Shown here: positions 6,516 through 60,283 of the stretch, in pieces | How the letters are laid out: every line of letters begins with the position of its first letter | Numbering within the stretch: the stretch's first letter is position 1 | Assembly (NCBI GenBank): GCA_018712945.1 | Contig: DVFZ01000095.1 | Span: 1 to 64,000, forward strand | Length of the DNA stretch: 64,000 nt | Direction: 5' to 3' | From: Candidatus Pullichristensenella stercorigallinarum | GTDB lineage: Bacteria; Bacillota; Clostridia; Christensenellales; Aristaeellaceae | Program-made: the position numbers and the translations under genes | The notes under the pieces: model-generated | Databases searched by the model: none | Told to the model about the DNA's origin: nothing | The model's input: only the letters and a program-made list of their open reading frames with translations

Positions 6516-6850
6516 GGGCTCATGGGAAAACCCGGCCCGGCGCGTTGAAGAAGCAAAGGCGGCGGCCGCATATGTGGACGGAAAGATGTGCTGTTACGAG
6601 AAGATTTTACCGGCGTTTGTCGCGGACGGCGGCAATCCGGAAAGCTGGATGGAAGCCGCCAGGCCGGAAAAGCACGGATTGTTCGCGGCGGGGCGTGCCC
6701 CCCAACAAGCAAAACCTCCGCTACGGCAGGTTGCCGGAAACGGAGGCTTTGCGGGAGCGCGGCCACGCCCCGCGGCGGCTTGTCAAAAAAAGGATTTTCG
6801 ACAAGCGGAAGGCGGCGGAATTGCTGTTCCGCCGCCCAATTTGGCTCTGC
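6516..6850. other. Hairpin-rich intergenic region
   Basis: No gene is supported in these 335 bp between convergent genes. It holds several inverted repeats: cggggcgtgcc/ggccacgccccg around a gcctccg-type stem (about 6690-6775); cttgtc...gacaag around an A/T-rich loop (6780-6805); and ggcggcggaa/ttccgccgcc (6811-6836). The last lies just after the stop of the minus-strand foldase and is its likely transcript-end hairpin. The cttgtc/gacaag hairpin resembles one in the element at 42.3 kb. Confidence 0.5.
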
Positions 6851-10784: not shown

Positions 10785-11043
10785 GGGCCGGGGACGGCGT
10801 ATGCGTCCCCGGCCCAGAGCGCTGCCAAAGCCTGCAAACGCAAAAATTGCCTTGCTGAAAGAAAAATCAGAGGCAATTTTTGCTTCCTGCGTCAGCCGCG
10901 CATGCAGCCTGCGGTCACTTACGCCTATGTAAGCTCCCTTGGCTGCAAGTTTGCTTCCTTGTCTTGCGGGCTTTTGCATCCCTCTGGCAGTCTGTTGACT
11001 TTGTCAACATCCTGGTCCGGGGACGGCGTATGCGTCCCCGGCC
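10785..11043. repeat. Hairpin-bracketed intergenic repeat, copy 1
   Basis: A 198-bp element (about 10816-11013) lies between two copies of the same palindrome; the 27 bp ccggggacgg...tccccggcc occurs at 10788-10814 and 11017-11043. The element is closely similar to the one at 39964-40160. Internal foldbacks include gcaaaaattgcc/ggcaatttttgc, cttac/gtaag, gttgac/gtcaac and aaagcctgcaa with ttgcgggcttt. Read on the minus strand it begins AGGATGTTGAC and ends GCGCTCTGG, and only the outer palindrome copy is followed by a T-rich run. It fills the gap between the HAD and cardiolipin synthase genes. Confidence 0.75.
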
Positions 11044-39924: not shown

Positions 39925-39940
39925 CGCGGCCGCGAAAAAC

Positions 39941-40184
39941 CCCGCGCCGCAGGGCGCGGGGCCAGAGCGCTGACAAAGCCTGCAAACGCAAAAATTGCCC
40001 TGAACAAAGAGAAATCAGAGGCAATTTTTGCTTCCTGCGTCAGCTGCACATGCAGCCTGCGGTCACTTACGTCTATGTAAGCTCCCTTGCCTGCAAGTTT
40101 GCTTCCTTGTCTTGCAGGCTTTCTCATCCCTCTGGCAGTCTGTTAACTTTGTCAACATCCTGAACCCGCGCCGCAGGGCGCGGG
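39941..40184. repeat. Hairpin-bracketed intergenic repeat, copy 2
   Basis: A 197-bp element (about 39964-40160), closely similar to 10816-11013, flanked by two copies of cccgcgccgcagggcgcggg (39941-39960 and 40165-40184). That palindrome is unrelated to the one flanking copy 1. The element ends are the same as in copy 1 (AGGATGTTGAC and GCGCTCTGG, minus reading). Differences from copy 1 include loop changes and substitutions that keep stems (for example the aaagcctgcaa / ttgcaggcttt pair). The palindrome nearest the phosphodiesterase gene is followed by TTTTT on the minus strand, so it acts as terminator of the lipoprotein gene. Confidence 0.75.
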
Positions 40185-40201
40185 TTCAGGGGTGGGCGGG
40201 T

Positions 40202-41917
40202 TTATTCGCCCTCGTAGTTGTAAACGACGTCTACGGCGGCGAAATGTTCGGCTTCGTCCCCGAAGTCTATAAGGCTCCATTCCAGCTCACTGCCGCGGTA
40301 ATAGACGGTTTCCAGGGCCACGGCGGCGTTGAAGCCCGAGGCGCTTTTCAGGCTCACGGGCCAGACGATGCTTTTGAGGGCCTCGTTTGGATAGAAGCTG
40401 TCGTTGCCATGGATGGAGAACTCGGTCACGCCGTCGGGGATGACCAGCGCTTCCACCTGTGAATCATAGGGCAGCACGCCGTCGCCGGATTCAAGGCCGT
40501 GGGGCAAAAGAAGCTCCGTCAGCGCCGGCAGGTAGGAGACGGGGTCGTACATGGAGGTGACGGCCGTCTGGGAAAGGTCGAGGCGCGCGAGGGAATTGCA
40601 GCCGCTGAACGCGCCCATGCCGATTTCCTCCACGCTCGCGGGCAGCGCCGCTTCGGTGAGGCCGCTGCCGTAAAAGGCCCCGCCGCCAATGGCTTTCAGC
40701 CCCTCGGGAAATTCGATATGGGTAAGCGCCGCCGTTCCGCTGAAAGCGTCGCCGTCGATTGTTTCCAGACTGGCGGGCAGCGTCACCGATGCAAGGGAAG
40801 CGCAGCCCGAGAAGCACTGTTCCGGAATCACGCGCACGCTGTCGGGGATGACGATGCTCTCCAGCTTCTCCGCGCCGCGGAAGCAGGCATAGCCGAGGTC
40901 CGTCACATCGCCGAAGAAGCGCACCGTCTTCAGCTCCGGCGCGCCGCCGAAGGCGCCGTTGATCTCGGGGATGGTGCAGGGCGACCAGACTTCCTCAAGG
41001 CTCGAGCTGAGGAAGGCGGTGCCGCCGTAGGCGGTGACGTCCTCGCTGACCACCAGCCGGCCGTAAAGACCCTCGTGTACGCCCGTGAGCGTCGCGCCCT
41101 CGTCGCTGAAAGTGAGGTACCCGCCCTCGGCCAGTTCGTCCCAGGTCATCTCCAATGCGCCCTCCACATAGAGACCGGGCTGCGCCCAGCCGCACACGGA
41201 GCACACGCCGTCCACCCACGTATGCTCGAGGCGGGGGCTGGTTTCGCCCTCCACCACCTCGCCGCACACGGAGCAGGTGCCCGTGCCGGTGTAGCCCTCG
41301 CGGGTGCAGGAGGCCTCCGCCGCGCCGGTCACATTTTCCAGCGTGTGCGGGAGGCGGGGGATGTCCTCGCCGTTTTCGAGCCATTCGCCGCAGACCGAGC
41401 AGTAGATGTTGCCGGTATAGCCCTCCTCCGTGCAGGTGGCTTCGGCCGCGTACTGCGGCTCGCCGGGCGTATGCGGTAATTTGTCGATTGGCTCGCCAGC
41501 CTTCAGCACCAGGTTGCAGTCTACGCACACCTCGTCGCCGGTGTAGCCCTCCCGTTCGCAGGTCGGCTCGCGGTAGCCAACCAGCTGCGTTTCGCCGTGC
41601 CCGGTGGCGGGAATGGCCTCGCCCGTGCCGATGGTTGCCCCGCACACGGAGCAGACAGTATCGCCCGTGTAGCCGTCGAGCGTGCAGGTGGCCTCGAGCG
41701 CGCCTTCGACCACCTCGGTGTGGGGCAGCATGGCGGTGGCTTCGCCCTCCGCGACGGTTTCGCCGCAGTCCAGGCAGACGGTGTCGCCGGTATAGCCTTC
41801 CTGCGCGCAGGTGGCTTCCACAGCGCCGGTCACTTCGGTGTTGCCGTGCTGGCAGCCGCAGGCGCTCAGCAACAGCGCCATGCCGAAAATCAGCAGCGTC
41901 AGAAACAGCTTTTTCAT
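40202..41917 (-). CDS. Lipoprotein with Cys-rich repeats and BspA-type leucine-rich repeats
   Basis: 571 residues; ATG 41917 follows agagaggggaaacaaacc. Signal peptide with lipobox LLLSAC (Cys about residue 18), so membrane-anchored outside the cell. Residues about 25-260 hold five to six repeats of roughly 46 residues, each with ATC..EGYTG...C..CG and a following LPHT or similar; Cys spacing suggests two disulphides or a metal site per unit. Residues about 310-550 are BspA/TpA-type leucine-rich repeats (SIVIPDSVRVIPEQCFSGC, SVTLPASLETIDGDAFSG). Such proteins mediate adhesion or binding at the surface of gut bacteria. No operon partner. Confidence 0.82.
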   Translation of the reverse strand: MKKLFLTLLIFGMALLLSACGCQHGNTEVTGAVEATCAQEGYTGDTVCLDCGETVAEGEATAMLPHTEVVEGALEATCTLDGYTGDTVCSVCGATIGTGEAIPATGHGETQLVGYREPTCEREGYTGDEVCVDCNLVLKAGEPIDKLPHTPGEPQYAAEATCTEEGYTGNIYCSVCGEWLENGEDIPRLPHTLENVTGAAEASCTREGYTGTGTCSVCGEVVEGETSPRLEHTWVDGVCSVCGWAQPGLYVEGALEMTWDELAEGGYLTFSDEGATLTGVHEGLYGRLVVSEDVTAYGGTAFLSSSLEEVWSPCTIPEINGAFGGAPELKTVRFFGDVTDLGYACFRGAEKLESIVIPDSVRVIPEQCFSGCASLASVTLPASLETIDGDAFSGTAALTHIEFPEGLKAIGGGAFYGSGLTEAALPASVEEIGMGAFSGCNSLARLDLSQTAVTSMYDPVSYLPALTELLLPHGLESGDGVLPYDSQVEALVIPDGVTEFSIHGNDSFYPNEALKSIVWPVSLKSASGFNAAVALETVYYRGSELEWSLIDFGDEAEHFAAVDVVYNYEGE

Positions 41918-41958
41918 GGTTTGTTTCCCCTCTCTCAACATTGTACAGGCCGCAAAAA

Positions 41959-42341
41959 ACTCCCCCGCGACATGCGGGGGAGCCAGACTGTCAAAACCCC
42001 CGGAGAGCGCGAGAGGGCTGAAGCCCTTTCGCGCTTTCAATCGTCTCCGGCGGCAGGTTGAAAACCCATAGGGTTTTCAAGTCGGCCAAGGCCGACCGAT
42101 TTTGACGATTTGAAAAATCGGCAAAATCGCCTCGTGTGCGGCGGGGACGGGGCGATTTTTGCGTCGGGAAATCCTATTTCCCAGAGCAAAAATCGCTTCC
42201 TTGCAATTTTCGCTTGTGCCGCAAAGCGACGCGAGCGAAAATTGGTAGGGGTGGTAGCGGCGGGGGAGCTTGCTCCCCCGTCCGCCATCTTGTCAAAAAT
42301 CTTTTTTGACAAGATGACTCCCCCGCGACATGCGGGGGAGC
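41959..42341. repeat. Hairpin array bracketed by identical palindromes
   Basis: The 25-bp actcccccgcgacatgcgggggagc occurs at 41959-41983 and 42317-42341. Between them lie about 330 bp packed with foldbacks: gcgcgagagggc/gccctttcgcgc, cttgaaaac/gttttcaag, tcggcc/ggccga, gcgggggagc/gctcccccgt and cttgtcaaaaa/tttttgacaag. The architecture equals that of the 10.8 and 39.9 kb repeats but the inner sequence differs. Read on the minus strand after transketolase, only the distal palindrome is followed by a T6 run, making it the working terminator. No gene is supported in 41918-42368. Confidence 0.7.
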
Positions 42342-42368: not shown

Positions 42369-44339
42369 TCAGCCAATGACCTTCTTGGCGGTCGCGGCCA
42401 CGTTTTCGGCGGTGAAGCCATACTCCTGGAACAGGAGCTTATAGGGCGCGGAAGCGCCGAAGTGATCCAGGCCGATCACCGCGCCGTCCAGGCCCACATA
42501 CTTGTGCCAGCCGAGGGTGGCGGCGGCTTCCACAGCCACGCGCGCGCGCACGGCGGAGGGCATGACGCTCTCCTTGTATTCGGCGCTCTGCGCGTCGAAC
42601 AGCTCAAACGACGGCATGGAAATCACGCGCGCCTTGACGCCTTCGGCCTTGAGCAGCTCCTGCGCGCCCATGCACTGCTCCACTTCGGAGCCGCTGGCCA
42701 TGAGCAGCACGTCCGGCGTGCCTTCGCAATCGGAGAGCACATAGCCGCCCTTGAGGGCGTCCTTGCCGCTCTTTTCATACAGCGGCAAATCCTGACGGGT
42801 GAGCACCAGCGCCACCGGCTGGTTGCCGGTCATGGCCGCCACCCAGCCAGCCGCCACTTCCTTGCTGTCGGCGGGGCGGAACACGGTCAGGTTCGGGATG
42901 GCGCGCAGGCCCGCCAGATGCTCCACGGGCTGATGGGTGGGGCCGTCCTCGCCCACGCCGATGGAATCGTGCGTGAGGATATAGGGCACGTTCAGGCCCA
43001 TGATGGCCGACATGCGCATGGCGTTCTTCATGTAGTCGCTGAACACGAAGAAGGTGGCGCAGTAGGGGCGCAGGCCGCCGTGCAGGCGGATGCCGTTGCA
43101 GATTGCGGCCATGGCATGCTCGCGCACGCCGAAGTGGATGTTGTTGCCCTCGGGCGTTTCGGCGGAGAAATCGCCCTTGCCCTTCATGTTGCTCTTGTTG
43201 GAGGGCGCCAGGTCGGCGGAACCGCCAAACAGGTTGGGCACGCGCTCGGCCAGGCGGTTAAGCACCACGCCAGAGGAATTGCGGGTAGCGCTCTTGCCCT
43301 CGAAGGCCCAGAATTCCTCGTCGTTCATCAAATCCACGGGGATTTCGTCGGCAAACCAGATATCCCATTCCTTCTTCAGCTCGGGATACTTCTTGGCGTA
43401 CTTGGCGAACAGCTCGTTCCATTCCTTTTCGGCCTCGGCGCCGCGGCGGGCGGCCTCGCCGGTCTGCTCGTACACGCAGGCGGGCACGGCGAAAGGCTCG
43501 GTTTCCGGCCAGCCGAGGTTCTTCTTGGTCAGGGCCACGTTTTCTTCGCCCAGGGGTTCGCCGTGGGCGCTGGCCTGGCCGGCCTTGGGCGAGCCGTAGC
43601 CGATGGCCGTGTGGCAGACGATCAGGTTGGGCTTGTCGGAATCCTTGGCCACTTCCAGCGCGGCGGCGACTTCTTCGTAGCAGTTGCCGTTGTGCACGTC
43701 GATGACGTTCCAGCCGTAGGCGCGGAAGCGCTCGGGCACATTCTCGCGGAAGGCGATATCGGTATTGCCCTCAATGGAGATCTCGTTGTCGTCATACAGG
43801 GCGATGAGCTTGTTCAGCTTGAGGGTGCCCGCCAGCGAGCAGGCCTCGTGGGAGATGCCCTCCATCATGCAGCCGTCGCCGAGGATGCAGTAGGTGTAAT
43901 GGTCGACCACCGGGAAGCCTTCGCGGTTAAACTTGGCGGCCAGGTGCTTTTCGGCCATGGCCATGCCCACGGCGTTGGCAATGCCCTGTCCCAGCGGGCC
44001 GGTGGTGGTTTCCACACCCACGGTGTGCTTGTACTCGGGATGGCCGGGGGTCTTGGAGCCGAACTGACGGAAAGACTTGAGGTCGTCAATCGTCAGGCCG
44101 TAGCCGAACAGGTGCAGAAGCGAATAGATCAGCATCGAGCCGTGGCCGGAGGAAAGCACAAAGCGGTCGCGGTTGACGAACTTGGGGTTGGCGGGATTGT
44201 GGGTCATCGCGCGCCCCCATACGGCGTAGGCCATGGCGGCCGCGCCCATCGGCATGCCGGGATGGCCGGACTTGGCCTTCTGCACGGCCTCGGCACTGAG
44301 AATGCGGATGGCGTTTACGACCATCTGTTCCTTGTTCAT
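42369..44339 (-). CDS. tkt: Transketolase
   Basis: 656 residues from ATG 44339 (the ribosome binding site aaggagat overlaps the in-frame ATG at 44348). Single-chain transketolase: thiamine diphosphate and substrate residues in AKSGHPGMPMGAAAMAY, SSGHGSMLIYSLLHLFGY, ThDP motif LGDGCMMEGISHEACSLAG...N, pyrimidine-domain VGEDGPTHQPVEHLAGLRAIPN and FRPADSKEVAAGW. Moves two-carbon ketol units in the non-oxidative pentose phosphate pathway. Full family length; monocistronic, followed by the hairpin-bracketed region. Confidence 0.96.
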   Translation of the reverse strand: MNKEQMVVNAIRILSAEAVQKAKSGHPGMPMGAAAMAYAVWGRAMTHNPANPKFVNRDRFVLSSGHGSMLIYSLLHLFGYGLTIDDLKSFRQFGSKTPGHPEYKHTVGVETTTGPLGQGIANAVGMAMAEKHLAAKFNREGFPVVDHYTYCILGDGCMMEGISHEACSLAGTLKLNKLIALYDDNEISIEGNTDIAFRENVPERFRAYGWNVIDVHNGNCYEEVAAALEVAKDSDKPNLIVCHTAIGYGSPKAGQASAHGEPLGEENVALTKKNLGWPETEPFAVPACVYEQTGEAARRGAEAEKEWNELFAKYAKKYPELKKEWDIWFADEIPVDLMNDEEFWAFEGKSATRNSSGVVLNRLAERVPNLFGGSADLAPSNKSNMKGKGDFSAETPEGNNIHFGVREHAMAAICNGIRLHGGLRPYCATFFVFSDYMKNAMRMSAIMGLNVPYILTHDSIGVGEDGPTHQPVEHLAGLRAIPNLTVFRPADSKEVAAGWVAAMTGNQPVALVLTRQDLPLYEKSGKDALKGGYVLSDCEGTPDVLLMASGSEVEQCMGAQELLKAEGVKARVISMPSFELFDAQSAEYKESVMPSAVRARVAVEAAATLGWHKYVGLDGAVIGLDHFGASAPYKLLFQEYGFTAENVAATAKKVIG

Positions 44340-44450
44340 GGCGAACATCTCCTTTATCTGTGTCGTTGAGATACGTAAACCTCGGTGGTGTCTCTATTGT
44401 ATCATATCCGTGCCGGTTTGGGCACGATTTTTGGAAATCTTCGCAAGAAT

Positions 44451-57745: not shown

Positions 57746-60283
57746 TTATTTGGAATGCTTGCGGCGCGCGCCCAGGCAGGCCCACAGGCGGCCGGTAATC
57801 TGGGTGGCGGAAAGCAGGCTGGAAAGCGCTCCGGCCAGCACCGGCACGGCCGCGGCGCGCACGGGCGACGGCCCGAGAACCAGCATCAATACGGCGGCCA
57901 GCAGCGCCGGCACGGCCACGGAAGCGGCGCGGCCAAGCGCCATGGGCGCGTCGCGCGCGATGATTTCCTCGCGGGAGGCGCGGGCCATGCCCGGGGTGCG
58001 GCTGGTTTCGCGGTAGCGGCCCAGCACCAGCGCCCCGGCCGTCAGCGAGCACACGGCGGCAAAGGCCACCGCCGCGGTGAAGGCCAGCTCCACGCGCAGC
58101 GCCCAGCCGAAGATGGCGGCCACAGCCACGGCCACCAGCGCGTCGCACACGCAGGAGGCCAGCGCCGCCAGCGCCCCGCTCAGGCCAAAGCGGATGGCGA
58201 TGTACACGCAGGCGAGCACGCACGCGGCCAGCAGCGCAAGCACGGCCGGGCCAATCGCGCCGCCAACGGCGGATACGTTCTGGATGGACACCAGGCGCGC
58301 GTTCGCGTAACGGGCGGTCAGCGCCGTGGTCAGCGCCTCCTGCGCCGCCTCCAGCGCGGCGGCGTCGGCTCCGGGCACGCGAATCTCCACGTCGGTCATG
58401 CTTCCCGCCGCGACGGTGGCGGCAGTTTCCGCGGCGTCGCCGGTAGTTCCCGTTTCAGCAGCCTCATCTGTGGTACCGGCGGCTTCGTCCGTAGTGTCGG
58501 CGGCTTCGGTACCGGCAGCTTCAGTACCGGCAGCCTCATCCGTGGTACCGGCAGTTTCGTCCGTAGTGTCGGCAGCTTCAGTGCCAGCAGCCTCGTCCGT
58601 AGTATCGGCAGCTTCAGTGCCAGCAGCCTCGTCGGTAGCACCGGCGGCTTCAGTGCCAGCCTCGTCCGTAGTACCGGCAGCTTCGTCCGTAGTGCCGGTA
58701 GTCTCGTCGGTAGTACCGGCAGCTTCAGTACCGGCAGTCTCGTCTGTGGTACCGGCGGTCTCGTCCGCGCTCTCGTCTTCGGGCAGCGTGGCTTCGGCCT
58801 TTACAATCTGATAGCCGTCCACGCCCGCCTCGCGCACGGCCCCGGCCACGTCCGCAAGGGCGTATTCTTCGCCCAGCGCGTACCGGGCCACCGCGCCGCC
58901 GCCAAGGTCAAGGCCGGGGCGCAGGCCAGCGCCGCACAGCTGCATTACCAGCGCCACCACGACCAGCGCCGCCGGGATCGCCGCGCAGGCGCGCGGGGAG
59001 AGGGAGAACTTCTTTTCCGACGCCTTTACGGCGTAGGGCTTATCGCTCAGGCGCAGGGCGTTGCCCACCAGGAAGCAGGCCAGAACCAGCAGCACCGCCA
59101 GCGCGCAGACCGCCGATACCAGCAGCGCGGAGGCGAAGTTTTTCACCGCGTCGCCGCCCAGCCAGTACATGGCCGCCACCGCCAGCAACAGCACCAGGCC
59201 CATGTCGGCGCAGGCCACCAGCGTGGGCCGCTTGGCGCGGCGCAGGGCGGTGAGGGGCGCGTAGCCCGCGCTTGCCTCGCGGGCATAGCGCTCCAGCAGC
59301 AGGGCAAAGCCGCCCGCCACCATGCAAAGCCCGGGCAGAAGGCCGAGCGCGCCCGCCAGCGACAGGTGTACAAACGAAAGCTCGCACACGAGGATGACCG
59401 TAAGCAGCGCCCAGACCAGCACGCCCAGCGCCGCCGCCGCGCCCGGCAGGCGGTAGCGGGCGATCAGGCCGATGACGGCGAGCGCCAGCGCCGCGCACAG
59501 GGCCACGGCCACCAGCGTACCGGCGTTTTCGCCCATCAGGGGGCTGATGTTTTCCACGCGCACGGTTTCCATTTCCAGCGGCAGCTCGCCCGAGGCGAGG
59601 ATCGCCGCCAACCGCTGCGCGGCGCGGGTACCGGCGGCATAGTCGGCGTAATTGGTCAGGGCGATAAAGCCCGTATTGCCGGAGATCATCTGCTCCAGCG
59701 TAGAGGAGAAGATCAATTCGTCATCCAGGTAGACCGAAAGCGTCTGCCCGGCGATTTCCGCCGCGGTTTCGGCGAAGCTGTCCGCCACCGCGCCGGAAAG
59801 GGTGAAGTTCACCGCGCCGTAGGGGTTGCTCTCGCTGTCGTAAACGGCGCCCACGGTGGGAGAGGAAAGGTCCGCGCCTTCCAGCACGGCGTTTCCATCC
59901 GCGTCGCGGATTTCCACATGGCCCGTGGCGCCGATGGCGGCAAGGTCTTCCTCCGCGCCCGAGGCGTCGGGCACCTCCACGCGCACGCCCGCATCCGTGC
60001 GGGCGACGGTGGCCTCGTTCAAATCCAGCGCCTCCAGACGGGCGCGCAGCGTTTGCGCCGCGCTGTCCAGCTGGCTGTCAAGATCCTCGGCGCTCGCGTC
60101 CGCCGCCGCGTATTCAGCGGAAACGCCGCCGCCCAGGTCCAGCCCCGGCTTCAGGAAATCGGCGAAGGGATAAAATCTGTATTTGCCGACGCGCAAGCTG
60201 CCGCTCAACCCCAAAATGGCGATCAGAACGACCAGCACGAGCACGACGCCCAGTTTGATTTTGCTCTTGGTTTTGGCTTGCAT
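57746..60283 (-). CDS. secDF: Divergent fused SecDF protein with a Thr/Glu/Ala repeat insert
   Basis: 845 residues from ATG 60283. SecD half: helix 1 (KLGVVLVLVVLIAILGLSG), PGLDLGGGVSAEYAA, a periplasmic-type P1 domain and helices 2-6. SecF half: PGLDLGGGAVARYALGEEY and helices to the C-terminus. Between the SecF P4 start and its end (DNA about 58405-58792) is about 130 residues of low-complexity repeats built from TTDEAAG, GTEAADT and similar. The helix-4 acidic residues of SecD (GMxVDANVLIFERI) and SecF (NDTIVVFDRIRE) are replaced: the aligned stretches read MVAGGFALLLERY and TAGALVLGRYRE. Assists Sec translocation, but proton-driven function is doubtful. Confidence 0.82.
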   Translation of the reverse strand: MQAKTKSKIKLGVVLVLVVLIAILGLSGSLRVGKYRFYPFADFLKPGLDLGGGVSAEYAAADASAEDLDSQLDSAAQTLRARLEALDLNEATVARTDAGVRVEVPDASGAEEDLAAIGATGHVEIRDADGNAVLEGADLSSPTVGAVYDSESNPYGAVNFTLSGAVADSFAETAAEIAGQTLSVYLDDELIFSSTLEQMISGNTGFIALTNYADYAAGTRAAQRLAAILASGELPLEMETVRVENISPLMGENAGTLVAVALCAALALAVIGLIARYRLPGAAAALGVLVWALLTVILVCELSFVHLSLAGALGLLPGLCMVAGGFALLLERYAREASAGYAPLTALRRAKRPTLVACADMGLVLLLAVAAMYWLGGDAVKNFASALLVSAVCALAVLLVLACFLVGNALRLSDKPYAVKASEKKFSLSPRACAAIPAALVVVALVMQLCGAGLRPGLDLGGGAVARYALGEEYALADVAGAVREAGVDGYQIVKAEATLPEDESADETAGTTDETAGTEAAGTTDETTGTTDEAAGTTDEAGTEAAGATDEAAGTEAADTTDEAAGTEAADTTDETAGTTDEAAGTEAAGTEAADTTDEAAGTTDEAAETGTTGDAAETAATVAAGSMTDVEIRVPGADAAALEAAQEALTTALTARYANARLVSIQNVSAVGGAIGPAVLALLAACVLACVYIAIRFGLSGALAALASCVCDALVAVAVAAIFGWALRVELAFTAAVAFAAVCSLTAGALVLGRYRETSRTPGMARASREEIIARDAPMALGRAASVAVPALLAAVLMLVLGPSPVRAAAVPVLAGALSSLLSATQITGRLWACLGARRKHSK
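58405..58792. repeat. Tandem repeat encoding T-D-E-A-A-G units within secDF
   Basis: Imperfect 15-21 bp units (variants of gccgcctcgtccgtagt and ggtaccggcagcttcag) repeated over about 390 bp without breaking the frame. The copies differ by substitutions at third positions and by whole-unit indels, the pattern of a slippage-prone coding repeat. Acidic and Thr-rich product, predicted disordered and extracytoplasmic. Confidence 0.85.

What the first reader, a model, noticed from the sequence alone, without database searches (positions are those of the whole stretch)
41959..42341. A different element in the same palindrome-bracketed frame
Seen: a 25-bp palindrome occurs twice around 330 bp of dense hairpins downstream of transketolase. 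The proximal copy has no T-run and the distal copy has T6, exactly as in the two related repeats, yet the inner sequence is different. A terminal cttgtc...gacaag hairpin resembles one at 6780-6805. This suggests a family of elements sharing a target rule rather than one repeat.
Basis: seen in the sequence. Interest (0 to 1): 0.6.

Follow-up and report, generated by a model that had tools for sequence, protein, structure and literature searches.

The report
Mobile elements that duplicate terminator hairpins
A short gene-less jumping element has landed in the "stop" hairpin after the transketolase gene and copied the whole hairpin to its other side; many related elements in this gut bacterium do the same in other genes' stop hairpins, probably moved by an IS1182-type transposase, so the shape of the target rather than its letters seems to set where they land and how much DNA is duplicated.

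Summary
A 25-bp perfect repeat, a terminator hairpin, brackets a 333-bp insert (41984-42316) after transketolase. The insert (family A) is dispersed through this Christensenellales genome and its relatives. The window's "two related repeats" are a second, 200-bp family (B). In 42 of 62 B copies with both flanks, a locus-specific stem-loop is duplicated to its base: 19-40 bp, tracking stem-loop length (r=0.95 with the left hairpin; within 3 bp of the right one in 41/42). Mismatched flanks give 2/945. The empty site exists: congeners G001 and G006 have one hairpin and no insert between the same two genes; G002 has an independent family-A insertion there. The ends (CAG...TG[A/T]CAAA) match IS1182-family elements of this genus, and 13 autonomous IS1182 copies elsewhere in Bacillota are flanked by duplicated whole stem-loops (two with caveats). 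Best explanation: MITEs mobilised in trans by an IS1182-subgroup transposase that joins at the feet of a stem-loop. Published IS1272/TnSha1 work reports stem-loop replacement or partial deletion; whole duplication was only a drawn alternative there. New variant of a known kind. Transposition itself and the transposase-MITE pairing are inferred.

The parts
41959..41983 (-). Distal copy of the duplicated 25-bp terminator stem-loop (followed on the - strand by T6, 41954-41959)
   Evidence: exact repeat; single copy in G001/G006
41984..42316 (.). Family A MITE, 333 bp; ends CAGACTGTCAAAA and TTTTGACAAGATG
   Evidence: dispersed copies; fold z
42286..42316 (.). Subterminal palindrome CATCTTGTCAAAAA/TTTTTGACAAGATG at the right end of A
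   Evidence: pair I5; same architecture in B and IS1182 left ends
42317..42341 (-). Proximal copy of the duplicated stem-loop, without T-run
42369..44348 (-). Transketolase gene whose terminator was the target
   Evidence: Pfam Transketolase_N 495 bits and others
40202..41917 (-). Next gene downstream, repeat-bearing lipoprotein-like protein; orthologue is the downstream neighbour at the empty site in G001 and G006
   Evidence: sequence
10786..10814 (.). Left copy of a different stem-loop at family B copy 1
10815..11014 (.). Family B MITE copy 1, 200 bp
   Evidence: shared with G006 (L057)
11015..11043 (.). Right copy of that stem-loop
39938..39962 (.). Left copy of a third stem-loop at family B copy 2
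39963..40162 (.). Family B MITE copy 2, 93% identical to copy 1 over 204 bp
40163..40186 (.). Right copy of that stem-loop
6779..6834 (.). Possible relic: A-type right end (CTTGTCAAAAAAAGGATTTTCGACAAG) followed by a hairpin; no left end or left hairpin copy found
   Evidence: 77% over 65 bp, E 2e-5

Best explanation
The finding is a non-autonomous transposable element (MITE, family A) that inserted into the intrinsic terminator of transketolase. Insertion duplicated the complete stem-loop, giving gene - hairpin - element - hairpin - T-run. Family A, family B and autonomous IS1182-subgroup elements share ends of the form CAG...TG[A/T]CAAA and the same target rule. Proposed mechanism: an IS1182-family DDE transposase, acting in trans on the MITEs, recognises an extruded stem-loop (cruciform or single-strand hairpin) by shape and joins the element's 3' ends at the two feet of the stem-loop on opposite strands. 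Gap repair then copies the whole stem-loop, so the target-site duplication is as long as the target hairpin (19-40 bp seen) rather than a fixed number. Shown here: dispersal, locus-specific duplication, length tracking, empty sites, shared ends, a transposase with an open frame in the genome, and the same behaviour in autonomous IS1182 relatives. Inferred: trans-mobilisation, hairpin extrusion, foot-specific strand transfer, and preserved termination through the distal copy.
For: Dispersed copies. Locus-specific duplicated stem-loops in 42 of 62 B copies, 19-40 bp, r=0.95 with left hairpin length, within 3 bp of the right hairpin in 41/42, null 2/945; same for A. Empty orthologous site in G001 and G006 with the same neighbours; further empty sites. 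Independent A insertion at the transketolase terminator of G002. IS1182 transposase with an intact frame in the same genome, 437.9 bits against a cut-off of 270, DUF772 + DDE domains; its ends CAGACC[A/G]TTGACAAA abut hairpins and resemble the B ends; A-type ends CAG[A/C]CTGTCAAA on IS1182 fragments of congeners. Autonomous IS1182 copies with whole-stem-loop duplications: L226 31, L230 22, L232 25, L233 32 bp; L268 22, L269 22, L271 24, L272 35, L278 22, L281 25, L287 31, L289 22 bp, L291 with inverted loop; 11 of the 12 such transposases in the tree fall in one clade, support 99/98.
Against: The intact IS1182 copy in G000 (L166) and three relatives (L228, L229, L231) show different hairpins on their two sides or only one end held. 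About 13 of 62 B copies have unlike or no hairpins even allowing for inversion and indels. The end match between MITEs and IS is short. One duplicating element (L287) has a transposase outside the main clade. No transposition was observed, and all genomes of the genus are draft metagenome assemblies.
Confidence: 0.82

Rival explanations
1. A MITE moved by a transposase that makes a fixed long duplication (for example the IS1202 family, 16-28 bp) and merely prefers intergenic hairpins.
For: IS1202-group elements do make unusually long duplications (PMC10132070).
Against: One element type (B) shows 19-40 bp, tied to the hairpin feet; ends are CAG...CTG, not TGT...ACA; IS1182 elements with the same ends and behaviour are found instead.
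Confidence: 0.04
2. A structured RNA or regulatory element, ancestral at its loci, with paired terminators as part of its function.
For: Very stable fold, z -14.8 and -11.2; intergenic position after genes.
Against: Empty orthologous sites, different hairpin at each locus, no Rfam match beyond tRNAs, covariation term +0.53 giving no support. A later regulatory role is not excluded.
Confidence: 0.04
3. Stem-loop replacement as in IS1272/TnSha1, with the second hairpin coming from elsewhere or from later rearrangement.
For: Same transposase family; IS1272 replaces and TnSha1 partly deletes its target hairpin (PMC5678879; PMC4923244). Some copies have unlike hairpins.
Against: Both hairpins are copies of one locus-specific sequence in most insertions, and this recurs in autonomous members; the duplicating transposases group apart from a staphylococcal IS1182 relative.
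Confidence: 0.04
4. A different integrase (Cas1-like, or a REP-associated tyrosine transposase) inserts at palindromes and duplicates them, and the resemblance of ends to IS1182 is coincidence.
For: Duplicating a whole palindromic repeat is also how CRISPR spacer acquisition looks (general knowledge).
Against: IS1182 copies carry matching ends and show the same whole-hairpin duplications when autonomous. Cas1 and RAYT were not searched for.
Confidence: 0.05

Closest known systems
IS1272 / TnSha1 (IS1182 family, Staphylococcus)
   Same: Same transposase family; target is a stem-loop, often a terminator, recognised by structure and not by sequence (PMC5678879, PMC4923244)
   Different: Those replace or partly delete the stem-loop and leave no duplication; here the whole stem-loop is duplicated. 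Ends differ (CAG...CTG here), and a staphylococcal IS1182 transposase groups with the non-duplicating clade
Pathway b of Wan et al. 2017, Fig. 13 (hypothetical)
   Same: Joining at the 5' feet of a stem-loop, duplicating the whole stem-loop, is what the sequences here show
   Different: There it was a drawn alternative without examples; here there are many
Bacterial MITEs in general
   Same: Short, gene-less, inverted-repeat ends, high copy number, presumed mobilisation in trans
   Different: Duplication length varies with the target hairpin instead of being characteristic of the element
IS1202 family
   Same: Unusually long duplications (16-28 bp in one group)
   Different: Characteristic length per element, ends TGT...ACA, unrelated transposase (PMC10132070)

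Membership tests
MITE (non-autonomous derivative of a DNA transposon) | Short, no gene, many dispersed copies | tested here: met
   A: 61 matching pieces in G000; B: at least 40
MITE (non-autonomous derivative of a DNA transposon) | Inverted-repeat ends shared with an autonomous element | tested here: met
   B and IS1182 ends; A-type ends on IS1182 fragments in congeners; the match is short
MITE (non-autonomous derivative of a DNA transposon) | Presence/absence polymorphism with target duplication | tested here: met
   Empty sites; duplications
MITE (non-autonomous derivative of a DNA transposon) | Mobilisation in trans by the partner transposase | not testable with these tools
   needs a transposition assay
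IS1182 family (putative partner) | Transposase matching the curated family model above its cut-off | tested here: met
   437.9 bits, cut-off 270; DUF772 and DDE_Tnp_1_6
IS1182 family (putative partner) | Insertion at palindromic stem-loops (reported for some members) | tested here: met
IS1272-type stem-loop replacement | Target stem-loop lost on insertion, no duplication | tested here: not met
   stem-loop kept and duplicated
IS1202 family | TGT...ACA ends and a characteristic duplication length | tested here: not met
   CAG...CTG ends; 19-40 bp for one element

The most novel reading that the evidence does not exclude
A subgroup of the IS1182 family, with its MITEs, uses structure-templated insertion: the transposase reads only the shape of a DNA stem-loop, cuts at its two feet, and the length of the target-site duplication is set by the target hairpin instead of the enzyme's own spacing. 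This would be the duplication counterpart of IS1272 stem-loop replacement and would make terminators a near-neutral home for mobile DNA.
Probability: 0.7. Interest if true: 0.7.

Novelty: new variant of a known kind. Interest (0 to 1): 0.6.

Why it matters
Most DDE transposases are described by a fixed duplication length; here the duplication follows the target's own secondary structure, which implies structure recognition and can be tested in vitro. It explains a class of hairpin-bracketed intergenic repeats that could be misread as RNA elements or paired terminators, and suggests how MITEs can reach high copy number while probably leaving a working terminator behind. The supported split between duplicating and non-duplicating IS1182 transposases gives a pair of related enzymes to compare.

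Tried and rejected
Rfam scan of the window: four tRNAs only. RNA-family idea for A: RNAalifold on 24 copies gave a covariation term of +0.53 (no support) and 6 of 35 pairs with two-sided changes, so selection on RNA structure is not shown. IS1202 and fixed-length duplication: rejected on length spread and ends. Segment 6520-6840 as another full copy: only its right 65 bp match A. Single terminators after transketolase in other genera of the family are too diverged to count as strict empty sites; the congeners are the real test. The reviews of Siguier et al. are not held. Cas1 and RAYT partners were not searched for.

Full report
What is there. The 25-bp sequence ACTCCCCCGCGACATGCGGGGGAGC stands at 41959-41983 and again at 42317-42341, identical and in the same orientation, around 333 bp without a gene. 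It is the stem-loop of the transketolase terminator: on the - strand the far copy runs into T6 and the near copy does not. A scan of the window for exact repeats of at least 16 bp lying 100-700 bp apart finds just three that are palindromic hairpins bracketing intergenic inserts: this one and the two "related repeats" at 10786-11043 and 39938-40186 (sequences).

The insert is a dispersed element. Family A (41984-42316) gives 61 matches in its own genome G000, many of them pieces of the same mosaic copies, and further copies in congeners and in G022 of the same family. The two related repeats are a second family, B, 200 bp, CAGAGCGCTGAC...TTGACTTTGTCAACATCCTG, with at least 40 matches in G000 and matches in seven of nine genomes searched. 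The inner sequences of A and B are unrelated, but both begin with CAG and end with CTG or TG, with TG[A/T]CAAA just inside.

The duplication rule. I took the 62 full-length B copies that had both flanks. In 42, a direct repeat scoring at least 14 abuts both ends. Its length runs from 19 to 40 bp (mean 27.5, sd 4.6), correlates with the length of the left hairpin at r=0.95 (0.77 with the right, where one hairpin was misdetected), and equals the right hairpin length within 3 bp in 41 of 42. Pairing left and right flanks from different copies gave such a repeat in 2 of 945 trials. The hairpin is different at each locus, so it belongs to the target. Of the 20 others, four have the second copy with its loop inverted and three have an indel; the remaining 13 have different, decayed or no hairpins. 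Family A follows the same rule: 25/25, 23/23, 32/32, 22/22, 34/37, 23/24 and 27/31 bp, and an A-like element of G004 26/26. The correlation is partly built in, because both detectors read the same flank; the wide spread for one element type and the near-absence in mismatched flanks are the stronger facts. T- or A-runs of four lie just outside the outer hairpin copies in 25 of 84 tests (22 of 42 sites), against 7 of 84 in control positions, which supports terminators as the usual target.

Empty and independently filled sites. At the exact locus, congeners G001 and G006 have transketolase, one hairpin, a T-run, and then the same downstream gene, with no insert. The G000 flanks with the insert and one hairpin left out align across the junction with both. 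G002 carries a different family A copy at this terminator, with its own hairpin on both sides, one of them inverted in the loop, and G003 carries a B-like element there. The KH-protein/RimM site filled by B in G000 is empty with a single hairpin in G001 and G006, and the carboxylase/GyrB-like site filled by A is empty in G001. The B insertion at 10815 is shared with G006 (L056, L057), so some insertions predate the split of species; the second hairpin is direct in G000 and loop-inverted in G006, which suggests that loop inversion can come after insertion.

The likely engine. The IS1182 model NF033551 finds one intact transposase in G000 (C32:39263-40591, 437.9 bits, cut-off 270) and many fragments. 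It has DUF772 and DDE_Tnp_1_6 domains. The ends of these IS copies, CAGACC[A/G]TTGACAAA, abut hairpins. They resemble the B ends (CAGGATGTTGACAAAG, CAGAGCGCTGACAAAG), and the IS right end TGACAAACCCCTGCA resembles the B left end TGACAAAGCCTGCA. IS1182 fragments in congeners G006 and G004 have the A-type end CAG[A/C]CTGTCAAA. In GTDB genomes, autonomous relatives are flanked by whole duplicated stem-loops of 31, 22, 25 and 32 bp (L226, L230, L232, L233). In Bacillota at large, eight more of the best loci show the same with 22-35 bp, and one (L291) reads as a duplication with an inverted loop. In a tree of 36 transposases, 11 of the 12 rows labelled as duplicating fall in one clade of 18 (support 99/98), together with four whose two hairpins differ or are not both held and three without a detected repeat; the twelfth (L287) lies elsewhere. 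A staphylococcal IS1182 transposase matches the non-duplicating group at 32-40% and the duplicating group at about 20-29%, mostly in shorter pieces.

Mechanism. The best-supported account is transposition into a stem-loop recognised by shape, with the element's 3' ends joined at the two feet on opposite strands and the gap filled, so that the stem-loop ends up on both sides. Wan et al. 2017 (PMC5678879) drew this as a hypothetical pathway b while reporting that IS1272 itself replaces its target stem-loop; Furi et al. 2016 (PMC4923244) reported TnSha1 insertion into terminator hairpins with partial deletion. In the parts of both papers read here, whole-hairpin duplication is not reported as observed. 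Siguier et al. are cited there for palindromic targets in the family, but those reviews are not held here; from memory, ISfinder lists variable direct repeats for IS1182, so prior notice cannot be excluded. Trans-mobilisation, extrusion of the hairpin and the joining step are inference.

Consequences, inferred. After insertion the gene keeps a hairpin at its end and a complete T-tailed terminator farther on, so insertion may be nearly neutral. The A element itself folds into many hairpins, and B copies sit inside A hairpins at L055, L104 and L165, so the elements seem to serve as targets for one another. The strong fold is not shown to be selected as RNA: RNAalifold gives a covariation term of +0.53 on 24 copies.

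Limits. All genomes of the genus are draft assemblies and many copies lie at contig ends, so unlike hairpins at the two sides may be chimeras. No transposition was observed. The end match between MITEs and IS1182 is short.

Noticed in passing
L055, L104, L165 (G002): Family B copies inserted inside internal hairpins of family A copies: nested insertion following the same hairpin rule.
   Followed up: partly
L056/L057, L022, L148, L151, L291, transketolase site of G002 (L305): One of the two hairpin copies has its loop inverted; L056 and L057 are the same insertion in two species, one direct and one inverted, so small palindromes appear to flip after insertion.
   Followed up: partly
L063 and L127 (G000): The right hairpin of one B copy equals the left hairpin of another: recombination between copies or chimeric assembly.
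   Followed up: no
Transketolase terminator in G000, G002, G003, G004: The same terminator is occupied by different elements in different congeners (A in G000 and G002, B-like in G003, an A-like end in G004) and empty in G001 and G006: a recurrent target.
   Followed up: partly
L287 (G282): CAG-ended element with a 31-bp hairpin duplication whose enclosed transposase falls outside the main duplicating clade.
   Followed up: no
L267, L275-L277, L280, L282: IS1182 elements with GGGGCTGT-type ends, no long duplication, and a transposase clade of their own; their inverted ends could themselves act as terminator-like stems.
   Followed up: no
window 41285-41818: Tandem coding repeats with a period of about 126 bp in the lipoprotein-like gene downstream of the insertion (family D3).
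   Followed up: no
window 58394-58777: Tandem degenerate coding repeats (family D1).
   Followed up: no
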